Assembly: GCF_037976825.1 (NCBI RefSeq)
Contig: NZ_CP150269.1
Location: forward strand, 3,919,501 to 3,983,500
DNA: 64,000 nt
Source of the DNA: Paenibacillus sp. FSL K6-1330
GTDB lineage: Bacteria; Bacillota; Bacilli; Paenibacillales; Paenibacillaceae
Direction: 5' to 3'
Position numbers and translations under genes: made by a program. Every line of letters begins with the position of its first letter. Positions within the stretch are counted from its first letter, which is position 1. The notes below the pieces were generated by a model. That model was not told where the DNA came from. It made no database searches and saw only the letters and a program-made list of their open reading frames with translations. Below, piece by piece: positions 1 to 18,600 of this stretch.

Positions 1-3000
1 TTCATAACGGCGAGCATAGCGGTCAGCGTGGGGATGGAGCGCTCCGCCATGATGCCGATTACGCTGCTGCGTCCCACACCTTTGGCGCGCAAGGTTCGCG
101 CCAGCGCATCGGTACGGCGATCCAGCTCCCGATAGGTCATGGATTCACCGCCGCAAGCTACGGCCGGCAGTTCGGGAACGGCCAGCGCCTGTTCCTTAAA
201 GCAATCATGCAGACAGCGCGGCGGCGAAAAGTCCGCTTCGCGTCTCCCCAACGCCAGCATGTGCAGGCGCTCCTCCTCCGTCAGCATCTCCACTTCGCCT
301 AGTGTGGCGTCGGGACGGAGCGTCACGCTGCGCAGCAGCTGCACATAATGCCGCATGAACCGCTCGGCTGTCGCGCGGCGAAACAAATCGGTATTATATT
401 CCACGACAAGCCGCAATTCCGCACCATTCTCCACAGCCTGAATCATTAAATCGTATTTGGCGGTTCCATGCTCAAAGCGCTGGTGGCGATACGACAACCC
501 CTCAGATGAAGCGTTTGGAATACCCAGGTTTTGCATGATGAACATCGTGTCAAACAGCGGACTCCGGCTGGCATCCCTTCTGTCCATCCATTGCGCAATT
601 TCCTCGAATGGATAATCGGCGTGGGCGTAAGCCCCAGTCGCCATCTCTTTCACTTCGGACAAAAAAGCTCTGAACGGCTTGTCCGCGAGCGGATAAGCGC
701 GCAGCGCCAGCGTGCCGGTGAACATGCCCGCGATCGCTTCTAGCACGCGCCTATTCCGTCCAGCAATCGGCGTGCCGACGGCAATGTCCTCGGCCCCTGT
801 ATAGTGGGCGAGGAACGTGTAATATGCCGATAGCAGCACCATAAACGGAGTCGTGCCCGATTCGGCCGCTAGGCTGCGCACAGCCTTCGTCAAACCAGCC
901 TCGACGTAGACGTCGAACGTTTCGCCGCGATTGCCTTTGACGAGCGGCCGCGGGGCATCGGTTGGAAGCGCAAGCGTCGGCCAGTCTCCCCGGCATTGCT
1001 CGCGCCAATACCGTTCGGCGTTCCCAGAGAGCGGCCTGCTCTCCTGCCATACCGCATAATCCTTGTATTGCAGCGGCAGCGGCGGCAGCGAACCTCCCTG
1101 ATATAAAGTCATCAGGTCGGACAAAAGAATGCCCGCCGACATGCCATCGGATGCAATATGGTGCATATCAAGAAACAGCACATGGCGCTCCGGCCCCAGC
1201 GTCAGCAAAGCTGCGCGGAGCAGCGGAGCCGTATCGAGCCTGAACGGCCGGAACAAGCTTTGCAGCACGGTCTCCGCTTCCGCTTCATCGGCCTCCATGC
1301 GAATCAAGCGGAAAGAAATGGCGTCGTGAACACGCTGTCTGATCTCTCCGTCGATGACGTGGAAGGTGGTACGAAGCGTCTCGTGACGCTCTACAATGGC
1401 TTGCAGGACGGCCTCCAGCCGATCTGCATCAATAACCCCGTCCAAGTGCAACAATTCAGGCAAATTATAGCTGCGATCATCCGGAATCGCCTGCTGTTGC
1501 AAATACATACGTTTCTGCGGCGATGAAACCGGATAATGCTCTTGCGGAGCCGCCTTTGGAATCGGCTCCAGCGTATCGCCGAACAAAGAGTCGGACACTT
1601 GGCCGGTCCATGGCCCGTCCTGCACTCTGGTTACTCTTGATCCGCCAACACCTCCAGCCGCCGCTTGCCCGTCACGAGTACCGTACGCCATTTTCCCGTC
1701 AATGGTGCTGGCTACCGCTTGCCCGCCGTTCGCCTCTTTCTCGCCGATCCCAACGCCTGCCCCTTGTCGATCATGCCCTGCGCTTGTTCTTTGCGCTGTC
1801 ACCGCGCCGCTCTCCCTGAGACGCTGCTCGATCAGCGCTGTGAACGAAGGCAGATCCGCATGTCCCAGCAAATCCGCCGCCTGAATGCGTACGCCCACAA
1901 GCTCGCTGACCCGGTTTACTATTTTGAGCGCAATAATGGAATCTCCGCCCAGCTCATAAAACCCGGCATTCGCAGGCAATTCGTCATAACCCAGTAGCTC
2001 TCCCCAAACATCTGCGACATGCTGCTCCCATTCCAGGCGGGAGCGCTCTCCGGTTAACGTAACGCCGCGGCGACTCTGACTCGTCATCCCGCCGCTCCGC
2101 TGAAGCACGGCCTGCCATCTGGCAAACGTCTCGTTCATTTCTTGCCCAAGCTCCTCGGGAATATCTCCACCGAGCGAATATCCGCTCCAGGCGGCAAATG
2201 GCATATGAAGCGCTGCTCCAGCCCGCGTCTCCTCCACCCAGCAACGATGAGCATCGAACGGATACGTCGGAAGCGGCAGCCGATGGCAGCGTTGTCCCCG
2301 AAAGATTGCCTTCCAGTCGATCTCGTATCCGCCCACGTAACGTTGGCCCAGCTCCAGCGCTTCCAATTCCCGTTCATTTGAACCGGGTTGCTGTCTCATA
2401 TTCCCGACCGGAGCTGAGTCGGCTGTCCCGAAGAGGACGTTCGGCAGCGCAAGGCCGTTAAGGCCGCTTTCGGCAACAGAATGCAAGGTGTGGACAAGCT
2501 CCTCCCAGCCGCTTACCGCAATCGCCAAGCGATACCGATGGGCTCCCCGGCCAACGGCCAAGGTGTAGCAAAGATCGGCTAGGCTGCGGTTCTCATCAGC
2601 GCGATGCTCCTGAGCCCAGTCCCGCATCAGCAGGACGAGCCGCTCCAGCGCCGTCATGCTGTGCGCTGACAAGCAGAACAGCTCCGCTCTGTCCGAATGA
2701 CCCGATGGTGTACCGGTAGGAGCCTCCTCCAGCACAACATGGCAATTGGTCCCGCTCATGCCAAACGCGCTTACTCCACATCTTCTTGCTTCGCCGTTCG
2801 TCTCCCATGGCGTCAATTCGTCATTGACATAAACGGGCGAATCCACAAACGGAATGTTGCGGTTGGGCGAGCGATAATGAAGCGTTGGCGGAAGCTGCTT
2901 GTGGACAAGTGACAGGATCGCTTTGAGCAGCCCTGCAATGCCGGCGGCATGGTCGAGATGGCCGATATTGGTTTTCAGCGAGCCGATGGCGCAAAATTGC

Positions 3001-4088
3001 CGCTTATCGGTATATCTCCGGAAGGCGCGCGTCAGCCCGTCGATTTCGATCGGGTCACCGAGCGGGGTTCCCGTGCCATGAGCCTCCATATACGTCAAGG
3101 TTTCGGGATCAATGTCCGCATCCTGCCAGGCGCGCACAATGACGTCCTCCTGAGCGAGGGCGTTCGGGGCGGTAATGCCGACCGAACTGCCGTCCTGATT
3201 CATCGCGCTGCCTTTGATGACAGCATATATAGGGTCGCCGTCCTCCTGCGCACGCGACAGCGGCTTAAGCAGCAGCGCAATCACCCCGTCGCCAATGCCA
3301 GTTCCATCCGCCGAGTCGTCGAATGTTCTGGCCCGGTTGTCGCTTGACTCGATGCCAAGCCGTATACCGGTATCAAGCGGCAGCACGTTAATCTTGACGC
3401 TGCCGGCAATCGCCGCCTCACATTCACCGCTGCGAATTGACTGGCATGCCAGATGGACGGCTACCAGTGAGGAGGAGCAGGCGGTGTCCACGCTGATCGC
3501 CGGTCCGCGCAAATTAAGCAAATACGAAATCCGGCTCGGTATCATGGAGCTCAGATTGCCTGGCGCCGCCATGGACAAGGCATCCGGGTCCAAAGCTTCG
3601 ATGATTCGCTTGTAATCATGCTGCGCGTCCCCGTTATAGCCCATAAAGACGCCGGTGCGCGAACCATGCAGCGCAGCTCCGCCGTACCCTGCATTCTCAA
3701 GCGCTCCCCAGGCCGTCTGTAGGAACAGGCGTTGCGCTGGACTCATCAGCGAGGCTTCCTTGGGCGAAAGCCGGAAAAAAGAATAGTCAAAACCCGAAAT
3801 ATCTTCGATATACGCCCCGTCAAAAAAGGAAACGGAGCCATATTGCACCTCCATGCGGCGCAAATACGGCTTCAATTCCTCCTTGCGGGAATCCGGAAAC
3901 CCGCCTACCAGATCCTTACCACTCCGCAGAAGCTCCCAGAATGCTTCATGCGATTCCGCGCGCGGCAGCTTGGCGGATATCCCGACAATCGCAATATCCT
4001 TGAGGGAAACATTGGAGACGGATCCCCCGCTCCGCCCCTTCCGCCCGGATGTGTCTTTTTTGGTATCCAGCAAATCCAGTTGAAACAT
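1..4088 (-). CDS. Hybrid PKS/NRPS protein, KS-carrier-C-A (partial, runs off left edge)
   Basis: Megasynthase subunit; about 1360 residues are visible. Domains in order: ketosynthase about residues 30-440, with active-site Cys near 203 in DTACSSS, His near 337 in HGTGT and His near 378 in NIGHLD; a flanking subdomain of about 170 residues ending in YPFD near 611; a carrier with GGDS near 714; a low-complexity Gly/Ala/Gln linker; a condensation domain starting near 856 with HHIASDG near 978; and the beginning of an adenylation domain from about 1295, cut before its pocket. No AT (no GHSxG) and no KR, DH or MT lies between KS and carrier, so the module fits the trans-AT type: it should add a malonyl unit to the upstream chain and pass it to an amino acid module. 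The ATG at 4088 follows an AGGAGGT site; the upstream CPBP gene ends 14 bp before. The substrate of the A domain cannot be read here. Confidence 0.93.
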   Translation of the reverse strand, partial: MFQLDLLDTKKDTSGRKGRSGGSVSNVSLKDIAIVGISAKLPRAESHEAFWELLRSGKDLVGGFPDSRKEELKPYLRRMEVQYGSVSFFDGAYIEDISGFDYSFFRLSPKEASLMSPAQRLFLQTAWGALENAGYGGAALHGSRTGVFMGYNGDAQHDYKRIIEALDPDALSMAAPGNLSSMIPSRISYLLNLRGPAISVDTACSSSLVAVHLACQSIRSGECEAAIAGSVKINVLPLDTGIRLGIESSDNRARTFDDSADGTGIGDGVIALLLKPLSRAQEDGDPIYAVIKGSAMNQDGSSVGITAPNALAQEDVIVRAWQDADIDPETLTYMEAHGTGTPLGDPIEIDGLTRAFRRYTDKRQFCAIGSLKTNIGHLDHAAGIAGLLKAILSLVHKQLPPTLHYRSPNRNIPFVDSPVYVNDELTPWETNGEARRCGVSAFGMSGTNCHVVLEEAPTGTPSGHSDRAELFCLSAHSMTALERLVLLMRDWAQEHRADENRSLADLCYTLAVGRGAHRYRLAIAVSGWEELVHTLHSVAESGLNGLALPNVLFGTADSAPVGNMRQQPGSNERELEALELGQRYVGGYEIDWKAIFRGQRCHRLPLPTYPFDAHRCWVEETRAGAALHMPFAAWSGYSLGGDIPEELGQEMNETFARWQAVLQRSGGMTSQSRRGVTLTGERSRLEWEQHVADVWGELLGYDELPANAGFYELGGDSIIALKIVNRVSELVGVRIQAADLLGHADLPSFTALIEQRLRESGAVTAQRTSAGHDRQGAGVGIGEKEANGGQAVASTIDGKMAYGTRDGQAAAGGVGGSRVTRVQDGPWTGQVSDSLFGDTLEPIPKAAPQEHYPVSSPQKRMYLQQQAIPDDRSYNLPELLHLDGVIDADRLEAVLQAIVERHETLRTTFHVIDGEIRQRVHDAISFRLIRMEADEAEAETVLQSLFRPFRLDTAPLLRAALLTLGPERHVLFLDMHHIASDGMSAGILLSDLMTLYQGGSLPPLPLQYKDYAVWQESRPLSGNAERYWREQCRGDWPTLALPTDAPRPLVKGNRGETFDVYVEAGLTKAVRSLAAESGTTPFMVLLSAYYTFLAHYTGAEDIAVGTPIAGRNRRVLEAIAGMFTGTLALRAYPLADKPFRAFLSEVKEMATGAYAHADYPFEEIAQWMDRRDASRSPLFDTMFIMQNLGIPNASSEGLSYRHQRFEHGTAKYDLMIQAVENGAELRLVVEYNTDLFRRATAERFMRHYVQLLRSVTLRPDATLGEVEMLTEEERLHMLALGRREADFSPPRCLHDCFKEQALAVPELPAVACGGESMTYRELDRRTDALARTLRAKGVGRSSVIGIMAERSIPTLTAMLAVM

Positions 4089-4102: not shown

Positions 4103-4906
4103 CTAGTTAGTAATGGAATGGCTTACGGCCTGTTCTTTGTCCGCCCTTCCACCAATCCCGCGCAGCAGCAGCAACATATGCGCCGCGATGCCGAGTCCGC
4201 TGATCAGGGCTAGTAATCCAAGTGTACCGGACTGCCAATCGCCCGCCCATTGCAGCACGATATACAAAGTGCCTGTGCTGCACACATGAGCCGCAAGCGA
4301 CCCCCAAAGCGAATACGACCCGGCGCGAACGGCGCCGTATACGATCGCACCAAGCGCCGCAAATGCGCCGACCGTCACATTCATAAATACCGTTCCGAAC
4401 AATACGGCCTGGAGCAGAACTGTCCACGGAACCGAAAGACGTTGACGCAGCGTATGGAACAGCATTCCTCGGAAAAGCCATTCTTCCAGCAAAGACCCCA
4501 GCAGCAAACTGCCGAACACAAAAATGATCAGGCTGCCGCCAGCGACAAATGCGACCAAATCCGAAATGGGAGGAAAGGTCGCTTTTACCCACGGAAGACG
4601 GGTAAAAGCGCTGATAAACAAGCCGAGCCAGACGCCTGTCCCGGCGGAAAGCAGCAAAGATCCGGCCCGCGCAGGAACTAATCCTAAATCCTTCAGCGAA
4701 ATTTTTTGCCAGCGAAGCAGTGGAATATAGACGGCAAGCACGATGATATTGGATACAATCAGCACAATGCCGGAATTGCCTTTGATCCAGTCTTTCAGCC
4801 CGGGATCGCCGACCCAGTTGTAGAGGACTTGATTGACAAGCATCACGACCGCCGCATAAATGACCAAATATAAGACGGTATTTCCCGCTATTCGCAGTCC
4901 CTTCAC
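4103..4906 (-). CDS. CPBP-family (Abi/CAAX-protease-like) membrane protein 1, motif-eroded
   Basis: 267-residue polytopic membrane protein of the CPBP (type II CAAX prenyl endopeptidase/bacteriocin immunity) fold. Motif 1 is intact (EEWLFR, Glu141, Glu142, Arg146), but the motif 2 His is replaced by Phe (residue 174, in FGTVF); the motif 3 His is kept (His207) without its usual Asn partner. Those histidines are metal ligands in active members, so proteolytic activity is doubtful. The chosen start is GTG at 4906, which overlaps the stop of the preceding gene as GTGA and has a GAGGCGG site; a longer in-frame extension to 5107 would lie entirely inside the neighbour. It is third in a tandem of three paralogues between two megasynthase genes, probably co-transcribed. 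Role unknown; self-protection, export or membrane anchoring are possible. Confidence 0.82.
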   Translation of the reverse strand: MKGLRIAGNTVLYLVIYAAVVMLVNQVLYNWVGDPGLKDWIKGNSGIVLIVSNIIVLAVYIPLLRWQKISLKDLGLVPARAGSLLLSAGTGVWLGLFISAFTRLPWVKATFPPISDLVAFVAGGSLIIFVFGSLLLGSLLEEWLFRGMLFHTLRQRLSVPWTVLLQAVLFGTVFMNVTVGAFAALGAIVYGAVRAGSYSLWGSLAAHVCSTGTLYIVLQWAGDWQSGTLGLLALISGLGIAAHMLLLLRGIGGRADKEQAVSHSITN

Positions 4907-5712
4907 AATGGCGTCACCGCCTCGGAAGTCAGCGTCAAGGAGATCGAAGTGCGATGCTTGACCGCAAGGAATATGCCAACCGCAATCATGGCGGCCGCCA
5001 CAGCCATCACAACCGACATGACGGTGACGTCCGTCGTCTCCGGCCCGTAATGCCAAAGCAGGTATTGGCTGCCCTGACAGGCGACTTGCGCGGCAATCGG
5101 CGCCCAAATGGATTTAAACCAGACATACAAGAGCGCAAATATAACCGCGCCGAGAAAACCGTACAGCGACAGCGGAATGTCTCCGAAAAAGAACAACGCC
5201 CCATACAACACGCCCTGAATCACAATTGCGATCCAAACCGGGAGTACGCGTCTGAACTCATTCATCAGAATGCCTCTGAACAACGTCTCCTTGTAAATAT
5301 TTCCGAGAATCAGGAAAACCAGAAATACATACCATTCCGCACGGTTCAGGTAATCAAACAATTCGCGGAACTGGTACTTGTCCGATGCAATGGCGGGAAG
5401 ACGGGAGAATGCGACCGTAAACAGGCCGGCTCCAAGCCCGATCCATAAAGCGATCGCTACTGATTTGCCGCCCATCACGCGAAACTTAGCCGCCTTAAAC
5501 AGATTTTCTTTGAATATAAGCCTCCAGGCCAGCAGCATGAGCGGCAAACCCACCATATCGTTCAAAATAATGACGGTTACCGTGTTCTGTTCAAACCACG
5601 TGCTTTTGGGGTACACATAATCGAAAAATAATGTCGTTACGGTAAAAAACCATGCAAAATACAGGCCGATAACAACAGCCACGCGAGCCAGCATCATTCC
5701 CCACGCCTTCAT
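4903..5712 (-). CDS. CPBP-family membrane protein 2, motif-eroded
   Basis: 269-residue integral membrane protein, paralogous to both neighbours. Aligned to CPBP motif 1 it reads KETLFR, so the first catalytic Glu is Lys141; the motif 2 His position is Phe174 and the motif 3 His position is Gln209. All the positions that bind metal or activate water in true CPBP proteases are therefore hit, making this the most degenerate of the three. The ATG at 5712 has a GGGGGGC site, lies 4 bp after the stop of paralogue 3, and the gene overlaps paralogue 1 by 4 bp, so the three look translationally coupled. It probably works as a non-proteolytic partner in the secondary-metabolite operon; the actual job cannot be told from sequence. 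Confidence 0.8.
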   Translation of the reverse strand: MKAWGMMLARVAVVIGLYFAWFFTVTTLFFDYVYPKSTWFEQNTVTVIILNDMVGLPLMLLAWRLIFKENLFKAAKFRVMGGKSVAIALWIGLGAGLFTVAFSRLPAIASDKYQFRELFDYLNRAEWYVFLVFLILGNIYKETLFRGILMNEFRRVLPVWIAIVIQGVLYGALFFFGDIPLSLYGFLGAVIFALLYVWFKSIWAPIAAQVACQGSQYLLWHYGPETTDVTVMSVVMAVAAAMIAVGIFLAVKHRTSISLTLTSEAVTPL

Positions 5713-5716
5713 GCGG

Positions 5717-6589
5717 TCAGCCCCCCTTTTGTGCTGCTGACGGCGTGTCAGCCGTCAGAGCTTGACCGGCGCGTGCGCCGATGCCTCCGCTGCCAGAGGT
5801 CCGCCAGACATAGACGGTACCTCCAATCAACGCAGCCAGACAGAGCGCTGTAATAATATACAGCGAAACATCGCCCAGCTTGCCAAACCATTCGTAGAAC
5901 CCGATGTATTTAAACAGAAAGATTGTGCCCATGGTCGTATTCTGTACCAGAATAGGCGCCCACAGCGACCCAGTGCGCAGATACAGTGACCCGTAAATCA
6001 GGCCCGAACCGATGCTGATGACTGAAAGCGCCAGGCTCGGCTGGAAGTAGGCGTATGCTGCGGCTTGCAGCACCAGGGCCACATATACCGGCATAACCCT
6101 GCGAAGCTCGCTGAAAATGAGACCCCTGAACAATATTTCTTCAAATGCCGGGCCGATCAAACCGGCGCCCAGAATGACATACCAGATCGAATCCCCCCTG
6201 ATCGTATCGTTGACAAGCGCGGGAATGGACGGAAATTGCCGCGCAATATCGTCAATGACGATCAGGCCGATACTGAACAAACTTCCGGCAAGACCCAAGC
6301 CAATCATTAACAAGACGCGCGAGGCTTTCAGCCGTTTAAAGCCCGACGCGCGAAACAGATTTTTTTCCGCATGGGGCCATATCCATCCTTTGATACGAAA
6401 GATGAGCAAATAAACAAGCGTAATCAACGTGAACAGAACAGCCATAAACATGGCTGGATTGCGATCCAGAAACTTGGCGAAGGACAGCGTCACTTCGTAA
6501 TTGTAAGTAGAGCGAAGCAGATAGAGCAGCGCATAAAAGACCCCGAGATAAAGAGCGATATTACCTATCATGATCAACACTTTTTTCAC
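5717..6589 (-). CDS. CPBP-family membrane protein 3, motif-eroded
   Basis: 290-residue polytopic membrane protein, first of the three tandem paralogues. Motif 1 EEILFR (Glu150, Glu151, Arg155) is intact, but the motif 2 His position reads Gln183 and the motif 3 His position Gln216. The C-terminal 25 residues are a hydrophilic Gly/Ala-rich tail that its relatives here lack. The start is GTG at 6589 after an AAGGGGC site. It begins 68 bp after the NRPS stop with no obvious terminator between, so it is very likely in the same transcript. CPBP proteins are known as prenyl proteases and as bacteriocin self-immunity proteins; inside an NRPS/PKS operon an immunity or trafficking role is an inference only. 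Confidence 0.82.
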   Translation of the reverse strand: MKKVLIMIGNIALYLGVFYALLYLLRSTYNYEVTLSFAKFLDRNPAMFMAVLFTLITLVYLLIFRIKGWIWPHAEKNLFRASGFKRLKASRVLLMIGLGLAGSLFSIGLIVIDDIARQFPSIPALVNDTIRGDSIWYVILGAGLIGPAFEEILFRGLIFSELRRVMPVYVALVLQAAAYAYFQPSLALSVISIGSGLIYGSLYLRTGSLWAPILVQNTTMGTIFLFKYIGFYEWFGKLGDVSLYIITALCLAALIGGTVYVWRTSGSGGIGARAGQALTADTPSAAQKGG

Positions 6590-6657: not shown

Positions 6658-9600
6658 CTACGTCCCCGATTCGGCGCTTCCTATTGCGACGCGATATTGC
6701 TCGACCACGCTTGACAGCAGCTCCAGATAACCGGAAGCCCAATCCAGCACCGCTTCCTTGCTGAGGCGCCGGGCGTCGTACGTCCATACTCCGCCAAGCT
6801 CTGGCACTTCCGCCCCTCGTGGTGCGGCGGCAGCACCACTCATATACAGCACAACATCGAATCGTTCCAATAGCCCCTCCCGCTCCTTGAACCCGTGCTG
6901 CGCTGCTCCTGCAAATAACGGAAATAAGGCAAATCCGGCTTCGGCTTGCGGCTGCTTTCTGATTTGCCGCGGGGTATAACATTCTCCCGCGTTTACCCGT
7001 TTGGCAGCATGCCGCAGCAGCGTATCGAAATCCCGCACCTCCCCAAAGTCGATTTCCTTCGGAGCAATCAGCCCGTTGTCCGTCATTGCCGGAAGCACAA
7101 GCCGGCCCATGCCGGACTTGCCGCGCCAGAAGTATAGATATACGGCATACGCCGCGGCTTCGACCGTTACCGAGCGGGATGCCGCAAGTTCCGTAAGTCC
7201 TTCCGATACCATCGTGTCCAGTTGGAACTGAACGCTGCCGATACGCTCCGCGGCATAACCATTGCAGACGCAGTCGTCTGCCACCGACAGACCGCTCCAG
7301 CTCCAGCTGGCGAGCTCCCGATTTCTCGACTTCAGATAAGCCGCAAGCGATGCGATCGTCGGGTAGGTGAACAAATCCGTTACGCCCAGAGCGCCGGGAT
7401 ACAACTCCTCCAGCCGTTGATGCACCCGCACCAGCAGCAGCGATTCTCCCCCAACATCGAAGAAACGATGATGGATGCCGAAGTCGTCCCTTTGCAGAAT
7501 TTCATGCCATACAGCGGCAATCGCCAGTTCAGTATCGCTTGCCGCTTCGACAAACGGAGTGGCGCTACCCGCCGCCAGCTCCAGCTCCGGCAGCGCCTTC
7601 CGGTCGATTTTGCCGTTTGGAGACAGGGGCATGGCTGGCAGTTCCACCACGGCCTGCGGAACCATATAATCCGGCAGGCGCAGCCCTGCAAAATCCCGCA
7701 GTTCCTGGTGGTCCACAGGTTCGGAGCCAACGATGTACGCGCATAAATATTCGCTTCCGCTTGTGGCGTCCCGCTTCATAACCACCGCTTCCGAGACCGC
7801 CGGATGACCGAGCAGCACATGCTCGATTTCACCACATTCAATGCGCTGGCCCCTTATTTTTACCTGATGGTCGATTCGGCCCAAATATTCGATCGTTCCG
7901 TCAGGCAGCCATCTGGCAAGGTCTCCTGTCCGATACATCAGACTGCCCTCCGTAAACGGATTATCGACGAACTTTTCTTCCGTCAAATCGGGCCGGCCGA
8001 TATAACCCCGCGCCAGACCCGCACCGGATATGCACAGTTCCCCGGCAATGCCGACAGGCTGGAGCTTCATCGATTCGCTCACGATATAAAGCGAGATGTT
8101 GTCGATCGGCTTGCCAATCGGTACATTGATCGAAATATCGTTGATCGAAATATCGTCGTCAGAGCAATCGTAATAGGAAACGTCAACCGTCGCCTCGGTC
8201 GGGCCGTACAAATTCACAAGCCTGGCATTGAACGGAACTCCGATCCGCTCGCGGAACCTCCGCACCTGATCCGCAGTCAACGCTTCGCCGCTGGCGAACA
8301 CATGACGCAGGCTCTCCAGCCTGGCATCGCCGCGCAGCAAGCCGGGATCCTCCAAGAACAGGTGCAGCATGGACGGCACAAAATGCATCGTCGTTACGCC
8401 ATGCCGCGCGATCGTATCCATCATAAGCGCGGGGTCCTTTTCGCCGCCCGGAGGCAGCAGGACCAGCTTGGCTCCCGCAAAGCTCCACCAGAACAGCTCC
8501 CAGACCGATACATCAAAAGTAATCGGCGTTTTCTGCATAACGACTCCGCTTGCGTCCAGTCCGTATTGCTTCTGCATCCAGCCGATCCGGTTGACGACGG
8601 AATGATGCTCGATCATGACGCCTTTCGGATGTCCGGTCGATCCCGAAGTATACAGCACATAAGCAAGCGAACGTGAATCATGCAGCTTCTCTACAGGGAA
8701 GTCGTCCCGCTCCTGCGTCATCACCTCATGAACGTCCGTAAATGGCAGAGACGTCTCCAGCCCTTCCGGGGCTTTGCCCTTCGTCAAGACAAGCTTGGCT
8801 CCGGAATTCTCCAGCATGTAGCGGATTCGATCGGGCGGCAAGCTCGGCGTAACAGGCACATAAGCTCCGCCCGCCTTCAGCACGCCAAAGATTGAAATCA
8901 TCATCTCCAGACTGCGATCCATCACGACGGCCACGCGCTCCTCGCGCTTGATGCCTTGCTTTCTGAGCGTCTGCGCCATCTGGTTCGACCTCCGGTTTAA
9001 TTCCGCATACGTCAATGCTCCGTTCTCCGCCGCAACCGCAACGGCCTGTGGCGTTTCCGCCGCTTGCCTTTCGAGGTAAACCTCTACCGTATCGCCGTTT
9101 GCATACGGCGCTGCCGTGCGATTGAACGCTTCGCTCTGCTTCTGTGCCTCTGCGGAGCCCTGCAGCCCGATCCCTCCGAGCGGTCGCCCCGGCTCCGCCA
9201 GTGCAAGGCCGACAATACGGAAATACCATTCCGCCATTCTGCGTATGCTGTCTTCCTTAAACAGCGCCGCCCTATATTCGATTGTCAAAGCTGCGCCTTT
9301 TGCGCCCTGATCCGCAATCTCAAACGTCAAGTCCAGCTTCGAAACGCGATTGTCCGGAACTTGCACCTCGAATTGCAAGGCGTCCGCCGCCGTCTGTCCG
9401 GCCTCCATATGCTGCATCACAAATATCGTGTCAAACAGCGGATTGCGGCTCAGGTCACGCGGCACATCCAGCATCGTCACCATATGCTCAAACGGGAGCA
9501 AGCTGTTGTCCAGCGCCGCAAGCACAATTTCTTTGAGCTGCTCGGCGAACGCTCTGAACGGCAGTTCGCCGGATGGCTGGCTTCGAATCGGCAGCGTATT

Positions 9601-12600
9601 GACAAACATGCCGACCAGAGACTCGGTTGCGGGATGGAAGCGGCCTGCGATCGGCGTGCCGACAATAAGATCGTCTTGCCCCGTCATCAGATGCAATAAC
9701 GTATGGTAGGCGGTAAGCCATATATGGAATGGCGTAACGCCCCATTGCTCTGCCGCCGCCGAGGTCCCCTCGACAAGCTCCGCCGGAATCGGCAGAGCAA
9801 GCTTGGCACCTTCGAAGCTTTGTTCAGGGGGACGCGGATAATCAGTCGGCAGTTGCAGCACAGGAAGCGTACCCGCTAGCCGGAACGCCCAAAATTGCTC
9901 TTGCTGCTTTCTCGCCTCCGAAGCCATCCACTCCTGCTGCCAAACGGCGGCATCCTTATAGTGAATGGGCAGCGGCTGCAAGGAGCCCCCGCGATACAGC
10001 TGCTCGAAATCGCGCGCCATCACATTCATGGACACGCCGTCGGCGACGATGTGGTGAATGTCCAGCAGCAGCGTATGCCGACTTTCGCCGTCCGTCGCGA
10101 GAAACGCCCGGATTAACGGAGCCTTTCGCAAATCGAACGGGCGGACGACCGCGCGCGCAAATGTATTCAAGTCCGCCGCATCCATCAAGGCATGCACGGC
10201 GAGTTCAAACGAAACCCGCTCATGGACATGCTGTACCGGCTTGCCATCTGCCCAGTCAAAGCTGGTGCGCAGCGGTTCATGGCGGTCAATCAGCCCTTGA
10301 ATCGCCTCGCGAAGCCTGTCCTGATCAAGCTTGCCCGTCAGGTTCAGAGCAAGCGGAAGATTGTAGGCCGTGCTGTCCTGATAAAGCTGCTGCAGCACAA
10401 ACAGTCTGTTCTGCGCGAGCGACAACGGATAGAACGGCCGGCTCTCAGCCCGGTTAATAACCGCAGCCTGCTTGGGAGCCGCGTTGTCGATGCGGGCCGC
10501 CATTTCCCGCAGCAGGGGAGCGTCGAACACATCCTTCATCGCAAACGCCGCTCCATAACGCTGTTCAATCAAGCCCGCAAGCTGCGCGGCTCGCAAGGAA
10601 TGGCCGCCCAATTGGAAGAAATGGGCTTCTCTCCCGATCGCCACCGGGTTGTCCGGTTCGCTTGCAGCCAGACCGAGCACCTCCCGCCAAAGATCGGCTA
10701 GCCGCTGCTCCGTCTGTGTACCCGGTGCCTCGCCGCAAGCCGCCGATTCAGCGAACCGGGGCTGCGGCAGGCGACTGCGGTCGGTTTTGCCGCTCGGGCT
10801 TAGCGGAAACGCTTCCATAGCAATGAAATACGAAGGAATCATATACTCCGGCAGCAGTTCCTTAAGTGTAGCCCGAAGGCTCGCTTCCTCCGGCGCCTCC
10901 CCTTCCGCTGTCACTAGATATGCGCAAAGAGCTGGCTCTCTCGCATGGTCCGTCACTGCCGTCACCACGGCATCGCGAACTTCCGCCTGTAAGAGCAGTA
11001 CGTGCTCGATCTCGCCGCATTCGATGCGGAGACCGCGCAGCTTGACCTGATGGTCAAAGCGTCCCAAATATTCAATATTACCGTCCGGTAGCCACCTTGC
11101 GCGATCGCCGGTACGGTACAGCTTATCTCCTGCGGTAAACGGATTCGTAACAAAGCTTTGCTCCGTCAAATCCGGCCTGTTGCGATATCCGCGCGCAAGA
11201 CCGGCACCCGCGATGCACAGCTCGCCGGACACGCCGATCGGCTGCGGTCTTGTCCGCTCGTCCACAATGTAGAGCCGGATGTTATGGATTGGCTTGCCGA
11301 TCGGAATCGTACCCGCCCCAGCGTCCGGGCAATCGTAATAGCTGACATCGACCGTCGCTTCCGTCGGGCCGTACAGATTAATGAGCCGGCATTGGCGGCC
11401 GCCGCGCTCCATCAGGGTGTAAAAACCTGCGACATGCGCGGGCTTGAGCGCTTCGCCGCTCGCAAATACGTATCGCAGGGAACAAAGCTCGCCGCCTCTG
11501 CCGCTGTCCGCCGCATAGGGCAAAAAGACACCCAGCATGGACGGCACAAAATGCATAACCGTAACCGCCTGCTCCTCAATCGCGCGCAGCATGACCGATG
11601 GCTCCTTCTCCCCGCCGGGCTCCAGCAAATAAAGCGAAGCGCCGGCAAAGCTCCACCAGAACAGCTCCCATACGGAAACGTCGAACGTGATCGGCGTTTT
11701 TTGCAAAATAATGTCACGCTCATTCAGTGGATAAGTCGTCTGCATCCAGTTCAGCCGGTTGAGCACCGCGCGGTGCTCCACCATAACGCCTTTGGGTTTG
11801 CCGGTGGAGCCTGACGTATAAATGACATACGCCAAATGCTCGGGGCCCGCTTGAGGCGGCAGGTCCGTTTCTTCTTCGCCCTTCGGCATCTCCGATGCAG
11901 CAGCAGCCGTAAGCGCATCCAGATCGAGCGTTTCTCCCTGGAAGGCCGGGAGCGTATGAATCCACTTGGCCCCCGCCAGAAGCAGCCTCGCCCCACTATC
12001 CTCCAGAATGCCACGGATCCGCTCGTGTGGATGCTCCGGGTCGATCGGCAAATAGGCCCCTCCCGCCTTGAGCACCGCTATGATCGTAATCATCATGGAC
12101 AACGAGCGCTGAGCGGCAATCGGCACAATCGTTTCGACCACAACCCCCTTGCCTCTTAGCACGGCAGCCATACGTTCCGCGCGGTCGTTCAGCTCCCCAT
12201 ACGTTAGCGATCCTTCGGCAGACCGCACCGCCGTTCGACCCGGCCAACGCTGGGCGGACTCGGCGAACCATCCGTGAATCGTCTTCTCCGCCGGGTACGG
12301 ATGTCCCGTATCATTCCATGCTGCAAAAACGGCTTCTTCGGCAGGTGTCGCCTGTGCGACATCGCCACAGATCAGGTCGGGGCTGGCGGCCGTTTGCTCC
12401 AAAATGTATAGCAGTCGATCCGCCAACCGCTCCATCGTTCCCTTATGGAACAATCCCGTATTATACTCCAGCTCCGCCCGCAGACCGCCTTCGCCATCGC
12501 TGTACAGATCGAGCTTGAAGTCCAGCTTGGATGTTCCGTGGTTGACGGGCAAAGGCTCCATGCTCCAGCCGTCGCCGCGCGCCGCCAGCTTCTCGTCTTC

Positions 12601-15600
12601 AAACTGGTTGTGAACGATCAGCATCGTATCGAACAGCGGGTTACGCGACGGGTCATGGGAATACTGGGCCACTTCCATCATGTGCTCGAAGCTGACATCG
12701 CCATGCTCGTATGCAGCAAGCAAACGCCCATGGGTCTCGCCGACAAACGCCAAGATTGGCAGTTCGTCCGCCACCCGCATCCGAATCGGCAAAAACTGGT
12801 TGAACATGCCGATCATCCGGGCCGTGTCCGGATGCGTCCGGCCTGCCGCTAAAGAACCAATTGCAAATTCCGACTGATGCGTCGTTCCCTTGAGCAACAG
12901 CGCGTAAGCCGCAAAAAGAAGGCTGTTCATGCTCGCTCCGGCGCTTGCGGCCGTCTCTTTCAGTCGTGCGGCGAGCACCGCCGAAATATGAAAGGTATAC
13001 GTATCGCCCGCAAATGTCTGACGGTCGCCGCGCGGCCGATCCAGCGGCATATCGAGCGGCGCCGGCGGCTCTGCAAGCTGCTCCGTCCAAAACGCTCGGC
13101 TTGCCCTGGCCCGCTCCGAGCCGGACTGTCGCTCCTGCCAAACGGCATAATCCTTGTAATGCAGAGCCAAAGATGCAAGTTCCGCGCCGTCGATCAAAGC
13201 GGTCAATTCCTCCAGCAGCAGCTTGACGGCTATGCCGTCCGCCGCGATATGGTGAATGTTGAGCAGCAGATAGGCCTCCGCTCCTTCTGATTCAGGCCGG
13301 CAATAACATGCGGCGAGCAGCGGCGCTGCGGCGAGCTCGAGCGGCCGGAAAAACTCGCTCAAGCATTCCGGCAGCGGCGTCCCCGTGAGCTCCGCCGTTT
13401 GAAGAACAAAATCGGCCGAATCGTGCACAATCTGGGCCGGAACGCCATCAATCCAATGATAGGAGGTCCGCAGCGGCTCATGCCGTTCGATCAACTTCCG
13501 AAGCGCTGACGCGATTCTGGTCTCATCCACCACACCCGACAGTTTAAGAGCAAGTGGAATGTGATAGGTTAGTCCGATATCAGCCATGCTTTCCGCCAAA
13601 AACATGCGCCGCTGCGAGGGACTGAGCGGATAGGATGCGGCTTTTGGCGCTTCTGCAATAGGTTCGTACGCTTCCTTAGCAGCGCTGTCGATCCAAGCCG
13701 CCTGCTCTCTGACCGTCGGCAGCTTGAAAATTTCCTGGAGCGACATGCGCACCCGGCAATGCTTGTAGATTGCCGAGGTCAATGCGGCTGCCTTCAGGGA
13801 ATGGCCGCCATGCTCAAAGAAGTGGTCAAGCGCGCCAACCTGCCCCGCATGAAGCACTTCTTGCCACAATCCTGCGACAAGGATCTCCGTATCGGTGGCG
13901 GGCGCTTCATATGGGACTGCGTACGCCGCTGCGACCGCTGCGCGCTCCGGCGCAGGCAGACGTTTTTTGTCCACCTTGCCGCTCCCGTTCAGCGGCAGCT
14001 TCTCCAACTGCACAAACGCGGCGGGAATCATAAATGCCGGCAGCTTGCCTGTCAGTTGGCTCCGAACGCTTGCCTGCCCTTCGGTTTGCTCTGCCACGAT
14101 ATAAGCGCATAAATACCGCGCACCGTCATTCTCGATCAGCGCCACATACGCTTCCTTAACGCCCGCGCAATCCAGCAGCCTGCATTCGATTTCGCCCAAT
14201 TCAATCCGGTAACCCCGCAGCTTGACCTGACTGTCGATCCGGTCCAGAAACTCCAAATTTCCGTCAGGCAGGCGGCGCACCAGGTCACCGGTTCCGTACA
14301 CGGTTTCGCCTTCCCGGAATGGATGCGGCCGGAACTTTGAAGCGGTCTGCTCCGGCAAATTCACATAACCGGATGCGACACCGTCACCCGCAATCCACAG
14401 CTCCCCCGGCACCCAGTCCGGCTGCAATCGGCTCTGTTCATTGAGTACCAGTGTTTCCGCACGCGCGATCGGCACGCCGATCGGCACGGTGGCCGCTCCT
14501 TCACTGTCCCATGTTTTCGTAATCGGATAACAGGTAGCGAACACCGTCGTTTCCGTAGGACCGTAGACATGCAGCAGCACGCCCGATCCAAGCGCGCGGA
14601 GCGCTTTGCGGATATGCGGTACGGAAGCCCGCTCTCCGCCAAATAAAATATGGCGCACGCCGCGCAGCGACTCCAGCCCATGATCGACCAGCGTATTGAA
14701 CAGCGCCGTCGTCACAAAGAATACGGTAATGCCTCTGCCCTCAATCAGCTCGGCCAGTCTCACAACGTCGGCAACCTCTTCCTCTCCAACCAGCGTCAGC
14801 TTCGCGCCATTCAACAGCGCTCCGTACAAATCGAACGTTGAACCGTCAAAGGCATAGTTGGAAAGCTGCAACAGCGCATCGTTTTCCGAAATGCTTACAT
14901 AATCGGTATGGACAGCAATCCGGGACACATTGCGATGCGTGGTCATAATCCCTTTCGGCTTGCCCGTCGATCCGGACGTGTACATGATATAAGCGAGATC
15001 GTCTGCCGAGCCATCAAAGTCCAGATTATGGCCGGACTCGCCGTCCCATCTTGTATCGAGTCCATCCATGTCGACGACATCTATGCTGTCTCCGGCAAGC
15101 CCTGCGACCATCTCCATCATCGCAGCCGCAGTCACGATCACCCGCGCTTCCGTATCCTGCAGCATAAACAAAATCCGTTCTTCGGGATATTGCGGGTCAA
15201 TCGGCACATAGACCGCTCCCGCTTTCAGCACAGCCAATATCGCCGTAATCATATCGGGCGAACGCAAGAGCAGCAGAGCCACCTTTGCCCCCGGCGCAAC
15301 GCCGCGCCGCACAAGCGCGCGCGCAAACCGGTTGGCACGTTCGTTCAGCTCACTGTAGGTATACGCCCTCTCGCCCATTTCAACGGCAATCTGCTGCGGT
15401 GACTCCACCGCTTGCCGTTCAAACAGCCTGTGCAGCGACAGCTCTTGCGGCTGGGTGCCGAATGAACGGCCAAGCTGGAGCAGCCGTTCCCGCTCCCCTG
15501 CATCAATGGGATCAAGCTCACCAAGCGCCGCATGCGGCTGCGCGGCGACTGCCCGGGCCAGTGCTACATAATGCCGGGCCAATTGCGCGGCGGCCCGCTC

Positions 15601-18600
15601 ATCGTACAAATCCAGCGCATACTCCAGCGTAAATGCGATACTAACGCCGTTATCCGCGCACTCCCAAGTCAGGTCAAACTTGGCCGTGCCGCTGTCCATC
15701 TCTTGGGGTGCATAAACGACATTCTTGCCCCTCCATTCGGGCAGCTCCATATTTTGCAGCGTAAACACCGAATCGAACAGCGGATTCCGCCCATATTCCC
15801 GTTTCACATTCGCCAACTCGGCTATTTCTTCATAAGGCACATCCCCATTGCCGATAGCCGCAAGCGCCTCCCCATTGACCTGCATCAGCCATTGATCGAA
15901 GCGCAAACCGCTTTGCCCGCGCAGGCGGATCGGAACCATGTTGACGAACATCCCGACTACGCTTTGCAGCTCCGGCCTCATCCGTCTTGCGGCTGCCGTG
16001 CCGACAATGATGTCGGATTCGCCCGTATATTTCGCCAGCAGCACATAATAAATCGAAAGCAGGACGGTGTATAATGTTACACCCTCGCGTCCAGCCAACG
16101 CCCGCAGCGATCCGGCAAGCTCCGGCTCCAGCTCGAAGCGCTCAATTGCCCCGCGGTAGCTTGGCTTCTGCGGCCTTGGACGGGGGGACGGAAGCGCCGG
16201 AGACAGCACACCATCCCGAAAGATTTCATGCCAATAAAGCTTCTGACGCTCTAGCCAGCCGCCGCTTCGGCCCGTTTCCTCCCACAGCGCTATATCCCCG
16301 CTATGAATGGACAACAGCTCCGGCGCGTTCCCCTCATAAAACCTCGTAAGATCGGACATCAAAATGCCCATCGACGTTCCGTCCGTAATGATATGATGCA
16401 TATCCAGCAGCAGCACGCTGGACTCGCGCTCCAGGCGCACAAGCTCCATCCGCAGCAGCGGCGCTTGCTCCAGATTAAACGGCTGCAGGAAGCTGCGCTG
16501 CCGCATCGTCAGCACAGACGCCGGCCAGCTGCTTCCGTCAACGACGGCAAGCGGAGGCTCAACCGCCTGCTCAATGCGCTGCATCACATTGCCATCTTCC
16601 ATATAAAAGGACGTCCGCAGCGCCGGATGCCGCTCTATCAGCGCCTGCCACGCCGCGCGGAATCGTTCAATATCGAGCGGGCCCTTCACCTGGACCGTAA
16701 ACGGCAGATTGTAGCCCAGCAGCCCCGGATTCAGCTCTTCCAAAATGAACAGTCGCTTTTGCGCCGAGGTCGCCGGATAAACCGTCCGCTCCTCCGCTTT
16801 GGACACCAGCGGAGGGACGGCGGCGGCAGTTCCTTCGCCCTCTTGCGCCTTTTGCTCCAGCAAAGCGGCCAGCGAACCCACCGTATCATGCAAAAACAGC
16901 TCGGTAAGGGTAAGCTCGACGCCAAACGTCTCTTGCAGCCTGGCGGCGGCATAAGCCGCCTTGAGCGAATTGCCTCCTTGTTCGAGAAAGCTGTCCTTCC
17001 GGCCTATAGAATCCTTTTTCAACACCTCGCGCCAGATGGTCATGATCCGCTCTTCCGTCTCCATGGCTGGCTCCAAGCCGACATCCCCACGCAAGGCATC
17101 GCCGCCTTCCGCATCACACCACTTAAGCGTGGCCGCCGCTTCCAGCTCAGCCAACTCGGCAAGCGTTTCGGCAAACTCGCCTTCGCGCAGCGCTTCCGCC
17201 AATACGTAGCGCCTGATTTTACCGGAGGTCGTTTTCGGAATTCGCCGAATGGGGACAACAAAAGCAACGTCCAGACCGGCCGATCTGTTCAGCAGTTTTT
17301 TCACCTTAGCCATCAGCGGTACAAATCCGCCGGTCTTGCCGCGATGCTGAATAAAAACGGCGATCGCATCCCGTTTGGTCGTCAGATCCTGAACGGCGGC
17401 AATTGCCGTTTTCCCGATTTCGGCCCCTTTCAGGCTACTGATCAACGTCTCCAGGTCATGCGGATACACATTTTGCCCGTTGACGAAAATGACGTCCTTC
17501 ATGCGGCCCGTCACATATAAACGCCCTTCCAGCAAGAAACCCAAATCTCCCGTATTCAGCCAACCGTCCGGGAAAATCATTTGCTTGTTTACATCGGGCC
17601 GCTTATAGTAGCCGCTTGTAACGTTGCGCCCTCTAATATGAATCAAGCCTACGCTGCCTGCTGCCGAAGGGTTTCCCGTTTCGTCACAAATGCGCACCTC
17701 GCACTCTTGTACGGGGAAACCCAGCTCGACGATCTCGATCGCGGCATGATCCCCGTGTGCGGCCATTCGTACAGGCTGTCCGACAGCGAGCGATTGGCGA
17801 TCAAGCAGGACAGTATTCAGGTGATCTTCCGTCCCCGGGAACGTTACGGCCAGACTCGCTTCCGCAAGCCCGTATACCGGGAAAATGCAATTCCCCTTTA
17901 ACCCGTACGGCTTCATCGCCTCCAGAAAATCGCGGCAATGGGCGGCCGATATCGGTTCGGCCCCGTTAAAAATCAGCCTGACGCAAGACAAATCCCAATC
18001 GTCCGCTCCTTCCGGCTTCCAATGCTGCAAAAAATGCACATAACCGAAATTCGGCGAAGAGAGGCATGTCACCCGATGCTTATGCGTAAGTTCCAGCCAT
18101 TTCATCGGATGAAGCACAAACGTCGAGGTTGGCAAGTGTAGCTGATTCATGCCGCAAAACAGCGGCGAAAGATGAAAGCCGATGAGCCCCATATCATGCG
18201 TCAGTGGCAGCCAGCTTAGCGAAGAATCCCTCTCCGTCGACTGCGCCCCAAGGATAATGGCGCGCATGTTCGACAGAATATTGCCGTGCGTTAATACGAC
18301 CCCCTTCGGATCTCCGGTAGAACCTGATGTAAACTGGATGAATGCGATGTCCGTCTCGGCAGCGTCATATGACTCAGCCTCGGGCCGAACTGCATCCGCA
18401 GCCGCTGCAAATATCTCAGCAACCGGCACGCTGCCGGACTCGAGCTGGGCCAGCGCCTCCGCCTCCCCGTGCTTCAAAGCGTAGCCTTGAATTCCCGGCC
18501 AAAGCTCTTCATCACAGAGCAATCTCGGCGCTTCCAACTGCTTGCATACCTGGATCAGCTTTTTGTGTCCTTCGTCCGTACGCGCCGCCGTCACAGGTAC

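What the first reader, a model, noticed from the sequence alone, without database searches (positions are those of the whole stretch)
4103..6589. Three tandem CPBP membrane proteins with destroyed protease motifs inside a megasynthase operon
All three share the CPBP fold and gene overlaps, yet every one lacks the motif 2 His (Phe, Phe, Gln), two lack the motif 3 His, and one has Lys for the first motif 1 Glu. Parallel loss in three paralogues suggests a retained non-proteolytic job, perhaps a membrane complex for immunity, export or tethering of the synthase.
Basis: partly seen in the sequence, partly recalled or inferred. Interest (0 to 1): 0.75.

Follow-up and report, generated by a model that had tools for sequence, protein, structure and literature searches.

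The report
Dead-protease membrane trio in lipopeptide factories
Three neighbouring membrane proteins that look like proteases but have lost their cutting residues belong to an old, strictly conserved set found beside one particular hand-over point of bacterial lipopeptide assembly lines, so they probably hold or pass on the growing lipid-tailed peptide instead of cutting anything.

Summary
In detail: three PF02517 (CPBP) genes, A, B and C, lie between an NRPS gene and a KS-led PKS-NRPS gene. All lack the motif-2 His, A and B lack the motif-3 His, and B has Lys-Glu for Glu-Glu. It is not local decay. In 61 distinct loci (Paenibacillus, Cohnella, Chengkuizengella, Clostridia) the pattern is fixed by subunit: A has EE..R with Gln for His (60/60), B has KE..R (60/60), C has EE..R (33/33) and keeps only the motif-3 His (32/33). 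A, B and C form one clade apart from other CPBPs, so one ancestral motif-2 loss is simpler than three parallel ones. Many loci have only A+B, often fused. In 60 of 61 loci a KS-led gene follows directly. All 26 clusters traced to their start are FAAL-led, with at least 2 residues before the KS; five FAAL-led lines with 0-1 residues have no CPBP. Best reading: a non-proteolytic heteromer that binds the lipo-oligopeptide at the membrane around the NRPS-to-KS hand-over. Step and partner are inferred; leader (prodrug) handling, export and immunity stay open. No structure could be predicted.

The parts
5717..6589 (-). CPBP subunit A (290 aa); EE..R kept, Gln for motif-2 His, Gln for motif-3 His
   Evidence: PF02517 52.1 bits; motif table
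4903..5712 (-). CPBP subunit B (269 aa); Lys-Glu for Glu-Glu, no motif-2 or motif-3 His
   Evidence: PF02517 49.3 bits
4103..4906 (-). CPBP subunit C (267 aa, GTG start); EE..R and motif-3 His kept, no motif-2 His
   Evidence: PF02517 44.4 bits
6125..6142 (-). A: EEILFR, residues 150-155
   Evidence: E150, E151 and R155 kept in 60/60 A domains
6041..6043 (-). A: Q183 in place of the motif-2 His
   Evidence: Gln in 60/60 A domains
5275..5292 (-). B: KETLFR, residues 141-146
   Evidence: K, E and R kept in 60/60 B domains
4469..4486 (-). C: EEWLFR, residues 141-146
   Evidence: E, E and R kept in 33/33 C domains
4286..4288 (-). C: H207, the only catalytic-type His left in the trio
   Evidence: His in 32/33 C domains; the other one lies in a frame-broken copy
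6658..18849 (-). NRPS1 (4063 aa): FAAL-T-C-A-T-C-A-T-C-A-T-half-C
   Evidence: Pfam domains; domain string
17125..18834 (-). FAAL-type loading domain at the start of NRPS1
   Evidence: one of four AMP-binding stretches; relatives of it lead all 26 traced CPBP clusters. The name FAAL is from recall of the family, not from a named model
6661..7320 (-). half-C: 220-aa tail of NRPS1, like the second lobe of a condensation domain
   Evidence: no Pfam match for the window's own tail, 10 of 18 tails match PF00668
3..4088 (-). PKS-NRPS2, first 1362 aa (gene runs out of the window to G000:C1:3913287): KS-T-C-A...
2709..4004 (-). KS domain directly after the CPBPs; Cys-His-His intact
   Evidence: triad kept in 36/36 linked KSs

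Best explanation
A, B and C are subunits of one non-proteolytic membrane heteromer (A+B the core, C an addition) that serves FAAL-started NRPS / trans-AT PKS lines. Shown by sequence: loss of the catalytic His set, one clade, purifying selection, subunit-specific residues kept in the old active site, and a place beside the NRPS T-half-C | KS junction. Inferred: the CPBP fold, which in eukaryotic CAAX proteases accepts a lipid-modified short peptide, here binds the fatty-acyl oligopeptide (2-4 residues) without cutting it and keeps its lipid tail at the membrane while the chain passes from the last NRPS carrier to the KS. Loss of the motif-2 His would spare the bound chain; the frozen EE..R/Gln (A) and KE..R (B) sites would be the binding site or the A-B contact. 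The timing (on the line) and the partners (half-C, KS) are guesses.
For: Motif-2 His 0/96 and motif-3 His 23/96 in the first set of domains; 61-locus count: A EE..R+Gln 60/60, B KE..R 60/60, C EE..R 33/33; 58 A/B-type domains from a protein search agree. One clade, 100/98. dN/dS 0.09-0.25. A-B fusions. A-B, A-KS, B-KS distances correlate 0.94, 0.89, 0.85. KS-led gene next in 84 of 85 loci, 60 of 61 distinct. Upstream NRPS ends in half-C in 81 of 85 loci. FAAL start in 26 of 26 traced clusters, with 2, 3 or 4 residues before the KS; no CPBP in 5 of 5 fetched FAAL-half-C-KS lines with 0-1 residues. Precedents: CPBPs without catalytic residues acting beside a catalytic partner (passages of PMC7387801); CAAX proteases act on farnesylated C-terminal tetrapeptides (passage of PMC10811503).
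Against: No experiment, product or structure; structure prediction was off. Half-C tails and KSs of 58-63% identity occur without CPBPs, so CPBPs are not needed at every such junction. The link with 2 or more residues may rest on few evolutionary events. Linkage in one cluster explains part of the distance correlations. Kept Glu/Arg residues could also mean a remaining catalytic job.
Confidence: 0.45

Rival explanations
1. Leader (prodrug) handling after assembly: the acyl-aminoacyl start is a removable leader. The pseudo-CPBPs bind it at the membrane and another peptidase cuts it, in the manner of DidK, which is itself a catalytic CPBP that removes an acyl-polyglutamine leader from didemnin.
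For: DidK sits in an NRPS-PKS cluster and is needed for leader removal and release (PMC10811503, abstract, passages and section 2.4). CPBPs appear where an amide bond lies inside the acyl start (2 or more residues) and not in five lines with 0-1. In L214 an A/B-like pair is followed by a PF00144 protein with C-terminal hydrophobic stretches and then a KS start.
Against: DidK keeps Asp/Glu, His, His, Asn and needs them; none of A, B, C has the motif-2 His. A tblastn with the L214 protein found no relative in any CPBP cluster held other than L214's own; it found distant ones (23-28%) in the three non-CPBP comparison clusters and one unrelated locus. The window's genome has 26 PF00144 matches, none inside the cluster.
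Confidence: 0.25
2. Export or flipping: the heteromer takes the finished lipopeptide from the line across the membrane.
For: About six hydrophobic segments in each of A, B and C by a simple hydropathy scan; no transporter gene was seen between the megasynthase genes (ORF list; not tested by family search).
Against: CPBPs are not a known transporter fold (recall). Gene place is tied to the NRPS|KS junction, and five lines without CPBPs also make lipid-started chains.
Confidence: 0.1
3. Self-immunity: the proteins protect the producer from its lipopeptide, as proposed for CPBPs in bacteriocin loci.
For: CAAX-type genes beside bacteriocin genes have been proposed to give self-immunity (passage of PMC10811503).
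Against: Content, residues and place are kept over Bacilli and Clostridia although the rest of the assembly lines differs; immunity genes would be expected to follow the product.
Confidence: 0.08
4. Still an enzyme: a changed active site (EE..R/Gln in A, KE..R in B, EE..R/His in C, perhaps shared between subunits) catalyses acyl transfer or hydrolysis by another route.
For: The old active-site residues are frozen in subunit-specific form (60/60, 60/60, 33/33), more than a bare scaffold needs.
Against: The motif-2 His, essential in DidK and important in MmRce1 (passages of PMC10811503), is missing from all three. C, the only one with a motif-3 His, is absent from 26 of 61 loci.
Confidence: 0.08
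5. Passengers: relics kept by linkage with no present function.
For: Lost catalytic residues; frame-broken copies of B or C in two draft genomes (L040/L166, L038/L151).
Against: dN/dS 0.09-0.25; fixed residues over great divergence; separate and fused forms both kept.
Confidence: 0.02

Closest known systems
DidK of the didemnin cluster
   Same: CPBP/CAAX-protease-like membrane protein encoded with an NRPS-PKS line whose chain starts with an acyl-peptide (PMC10811503)
   Different: Single protein with catalytic D203/E204/H237/H274/N278; hydrolyses an ester. Here two or three proteins, none with the motif-2 His. DidK's sequence was not compared
LnsB of Staphylococcus aureus lipoprotein N-acylation
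   Same: CPBP-like membrane protein diverged from the catalytic motifs, needed with a second, catalytic protein in lipid transfer (passages of PMC7387801)
   Different: Only remote homology to CPBPs, one CPBP, ribosomal lipoproteins as substrate; not compared by sequence
SpdC (LyrA; SagB-SpdC complex) and APH-1 of gamma-secretase
   Same: CPBP-type proteins without own proteolysis acting in a membrane complex (as stated in PMC7387801 and PMC10811503 passages)
   Different: Other partners and roles; the passages read describe no heteromer of two or three CPBPs
Intact Rce1-like CPBPs of the same phylum (L215-L232)
   Same: Closest relatives found in the phylum search; same motif context (for example QGLLFGIFH against QGVLYG.FF)
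   Different: All 19 readable domains keep Glu-Glu and both His, and no NRPS/PKS neighbour was recognised

Membership tests
CPBP / Rce1-like family (PF02517) | Match to the Pfam model above its cut-off | tested here: met
   52.1, 49.3, 44.4 bits against 22.4
Catalytic glutamic intramembrane protease (CPBP peptidase) | Glu-Glu...Arg in motif 1 | tested here: not met
   Met by A and C; B has Lys-Glu
Catalytic glutamic intramembrane protease (CPBP peptidase) | Motif-2 His | tested here: not met
   Gln in A, Phe in B and C; 0 of 96 domains
Catalytic glutamic intramembrane protease (CPBP peptidase) | Motif-3 His | tested here: not met
   Met by C only
Catalytic glutamic intramembrane protease (CPBP peptidase) | Proteolytic activity | not testable with these tools
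   needs an assay
DidK-type leader hydrolase | Encoded in an NRPS-PKS cluster with an acylated start | tested here: met
   FAAL start in 26 of 26 traced clusters
DidK-type leader hydrolase | Catalytic residues as in DidK | tested here: not met
   motif-2 His absent in A, B, C
Non-catalytic CPBP partner (LnsB / SpdC / APH-1 kind) | CPBP fold without the catalytic set | tested here: met
   (fold by sequence only)
Non-catalytic CPBP partner (LnsB / SpdC / APH-1 kind) | Stable complex with a catalytic partner | not testable with these tools
   structure prediction off; only A-B fusions as indirect sign
Bacteriocin-locus CPBP immunity protein | Next to a bacteriocin structural gene | tested here: not met
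   direct neighbours are NRPS and PKS-NRPS genes; small peptide genes were not searched for

The most novel reading that the evidence does not exclude
The pseudo-CPBP heteromer is a membrane-integral working part of a modular assembly line: a fold that once cut lipid-modified peptides, turned into a clamp that holds the fatty-acyl di- to tetrapeptide while it crosses from the NRPS (T-half-C) to the trans-AT KS.
Probability: 0.3. Interest if true: 0.85.

Novelty: new variant of a known kind. Interest (0 to 1): 0.7.

Why it matters
NRPS and PKS lines are mostly treated as soluble machines. A conserved membrane pseudo-protease set that goes with lipid chains carrying two or more residues into a KS would be a new kind of assembly-line part, a marker for a family of lipopeptide clusters, and a case of a protease fold becoming a multi-subunit pseudo-enzyme with its intact relatives at hand. 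Names given by sources call many of these proteins endopeptidases or metalloproteases, which the sequences contradict. The Gln, Lys-Glu and Glu-Glu sites give direct point-mutation tests.

Tried and rejected
Rejected: (1) Recent pseudogenes or passengers (dN/dS 0.09-0.25). (2) Three parallel losses: one clade (100/98), though group A alone has weak support (78/47) and B+C is weak (86/57). (3) A strict rule 'number of CPBPs = number of residues before the KS': 25 of 26 traced clusters fit, the Acetivibrio one (L181; 2 CPBPs, 4 residues) does not, and the three-CPBP clade may be one event. (4) Half-C tail as a partner of CPBPs only: its profile matches 51 of 200 relatives, A matched 19 of the same 200. 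(5) 'Every KS of this type needs CPBPs': of the 30 KS loci given, the 19 at 63-100% identity have CPBPs upstream and the 11 at 58-63% have none; many further matches were not fetched. The KS tree needs 2 changes for the label, not 1. (6) Plasmid carriage: no match for B in 'plasmids'.

Led nowhere: PDB sequence searches; structure prediction (switched off), hence no fold search; literature. Searches gave no paper, one unrelated paper; the listings showed no report of such a pair or trio (only DidK is close). PMC11959601 holds neither 'CAAX' nor 'protease' and PMC9867215 no 'CAAX' in their main text; passages only were read. The library holds open-licence papers only.

Limits: the scan used a pattern with KE, so KE is partly ascertained there (105 stretches, 48 relatives). 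Searches scored only 8000 candidates each; one search scored at most 6 candidates a genome. Domain strings use profiles built from this cluster, several from one sequence; epimerisation, ketoreductase and other domains were not called. Type labels A/B/C came from the motif residues themselves. One of the 14 control rows of the tree (L007) also lacks the motif-2 His.

Full report
What is there. Between the gene for NRPS1 (6658-18849) and the KS-led PKS-NRPS2 gene (from 4088 down to G000:C1:3913287, beyond the window) lie three minus-strand genes: A 5717-6589, B 4903-5712, C 4103-4906. All three exceed the PF02517 cut-off and are 25-26% identical to each other. Only B and C overlap.

Is it unusual? 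The window's genome has 8 PF02517 matches, three of them this trio. Among 52 other CPBPs of 9 related genomes (52 of the 54 matches outside such trios), 51 keep EE...R, 50 the motif-2 His and 46 all three motifs by regular expression. The nearest relatives outside such clusters, from the same phylum, are intact: the 19 readable domains of L215-L232 all show Glu-Glu and both His, and no NRPS/PKS neighbour was recognised by comparison with the window's cluster.

The pattern is old and fixed. P0001 matched 19 of 200 genomes, P0002 30 of 392 of the order. A scan of genome contigs with the B alignment gave 105 pattern matches, 48 of them relatives, in Paenibacillus, Cohnella, Chengkuizengella, Acetivibrio, Ruminiclostridium and an uncultured Clostridia bin. 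After removing duplicates there are 61 loci: 33 with A+B+C, 26 with A+B, and L045 (A only) and L094 (B only), two ends of one cluster. A: EE..R and Gln for the motif-2 His in 60/60, never a motif-3 His. B: KE..R in 60/60, no His at either place. C: EE..R in 33/33, no motif-2 His, motif-3 His in 32/33. Proteins from two searches of the large protein database agree: 58 A/B-type domains without the motif-2 His, 12 intact relatives, 1 partial. One distant pair (L214) has Arg-Glu where B has Lys-Glu.

One origin. In a tree of 96 domains A, B and C together form one side of a branch (100/98) against 16 intact relatives and 14 other CPBPs of related genomes; B (100/99) and C (100/99) are solid, A is weak (78/47), B+C is weak (86/57). 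Labels came from motif residues, a handful of 273 columns. Loss of the motif-2 His before A, B and C split is the simplest reading.

Heteromer. A and B occur together in all 59 full loci. Order varies (A-B; B-A in L177, L180, L181; B-C-AT-A in L091, L174, L175), and A and B are one polypeptide of roughly 540-570 aa in L050, L092, L093, L095, L096, L098 and in L178, L182 and L184-L193. A-B distances correlate at 0.94, A-KS at 0.89 and B-KS at 0.85 over 35 loci, with 0 of 2000 permutations as high; linkage alone could give part of this. dN/dS is 0.09-0.25 in 15 comparisons.

Where they sit. In 84 of 85 loci (60 of 61 distinct) a KS domain begins 65-370 bp after the last CPBP domain. The exception is L045, whose B and KS lie in the same cluster (L094). 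The KS Cys-His-His is intact in 36/36. The NRPS before the CPBPs ends, after its last carrier domain, in a tail of 194-225 aa in 81 of 85 loci (exceptions L045, L046, L048, L179); the tail profile matches parts of the window's own condensation domains, and 10 of 18 tails, not the window's own, match PF00668.

Which lines carry them. Domain strings of 26 CPBP clusters begin with a FAAL-type domain: 9 of 9 three-CPBP clusters have FAAL-T-(C-A-T)3-half-C; of 17 two-CPBP clusters 16 have (C-A-T)2 and the Acetivibrio one has 4 modules (two further stretches held no CPBP and are not counted). In the 200 relatives, comparing the match lists by eye, twelve other frames carry FAAL and half-C together, by their length with 0 or 1 module between. 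Five of the twelve were fetched, and all five run FAAL-T-(C-A-T)0 or 1-half-C, AT, KS with no CPBP match and no other strongly hydrophobic ORF on that strand. Three further half-C-AT-KS clusters without FAAL also lack CPBPs. So CPBPs go with lines in which a fatty acid plus at least two residues reaches this type of KS. How many independent events stand behind this is unknown.

How it may work. Shown: loss of the catalytic set, selection, co-occurrence, place. Inferred: the CPBP fold, which in CAAX proteases acts on a farnesylated short peptide (passage of PMC10811503), binds the fatty-acyl oligopeptide without cutting it and helps it across the NRPS-to-KS junction. The conservation of EE..R/Gln in A and KE..R in B argues for a used site rather than a bare anchor. 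Leader handling is the strongest rival: DidK is a catalytic CPBP that removes an acyl-polyglutamine leader (PMC10811503: abstract, passages and section 2.4 read), and the L214 pair lies beside a PF00144 protein followed by what looks like a KS start.

Known kinds. CPBPs without catalytic residues that work beside another protein are on record (LnsB, with SpdC and APH-1 discussed; passages of PMC7387801). A CPBP in an NRPS-PKS cluster is on record (DidK), and its authors mention further didK-like genes with such clusters. A fixed pair or trio of pseudo-CPBPs tied to one assembly-line junction was not found in the searches. I call it a new variant of a known kind.

Noticed in passing
window 6661-7320: 220-aa half-condensation tail at the end of NRPS1; the same kind of tail precedes trans-AT KS genes in many lines without CPBPs (51 of 200 relatives match its profile). 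A possible NRPS-to-PKS docking part.
   Followed up: partly
L214 478-1992 (minus): A PF00144 (beta-lactamase family) protein with C-terminal hydrophobic stretches lies between a divergent pseudo-CPBP pair (Arg-Glu for Lys-Glu) and a KS start; distant relatives (23-28%) lie in the three non-CPBP comparison clusters L323, L325, L327. Resemblance to ClbP-type prodrug peptidases is recalled, not tested.
   Followed up: partly
L011 12282-13253 (minus), after PKS-NRPS2: 323-aa protein with a weak match to BtrH_N (16.2 bits, cut-off 29.7). Relatives follow the last NRPS, ending in a C domain, in G078, G331 and G387 and one is fused behind a C domain in Acetivibrio. Possibly a product-release protein.
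   Followed up: no
window 4103-6589 and relatives: Subunit A is 91-94% identical in genomes of another GTDB family (f6) but only 60-61% in some genomes of the same genus (G008, G062, G078), which suggests horizontal transfer of the cluster.
   Followed up: no
L040/L166 (B) and L038/L151 (C): Frame-broken copies of B or C in two draft genomes; sequencing error or decay not told apart.
   Followed up: no
L045 and L094 (G135:C1): In one Chengkuizengella cluster A has moved to the 3' end of the operon, behind a 7497-aa NRPS, while B stays before the KS.
   Followed up: partly
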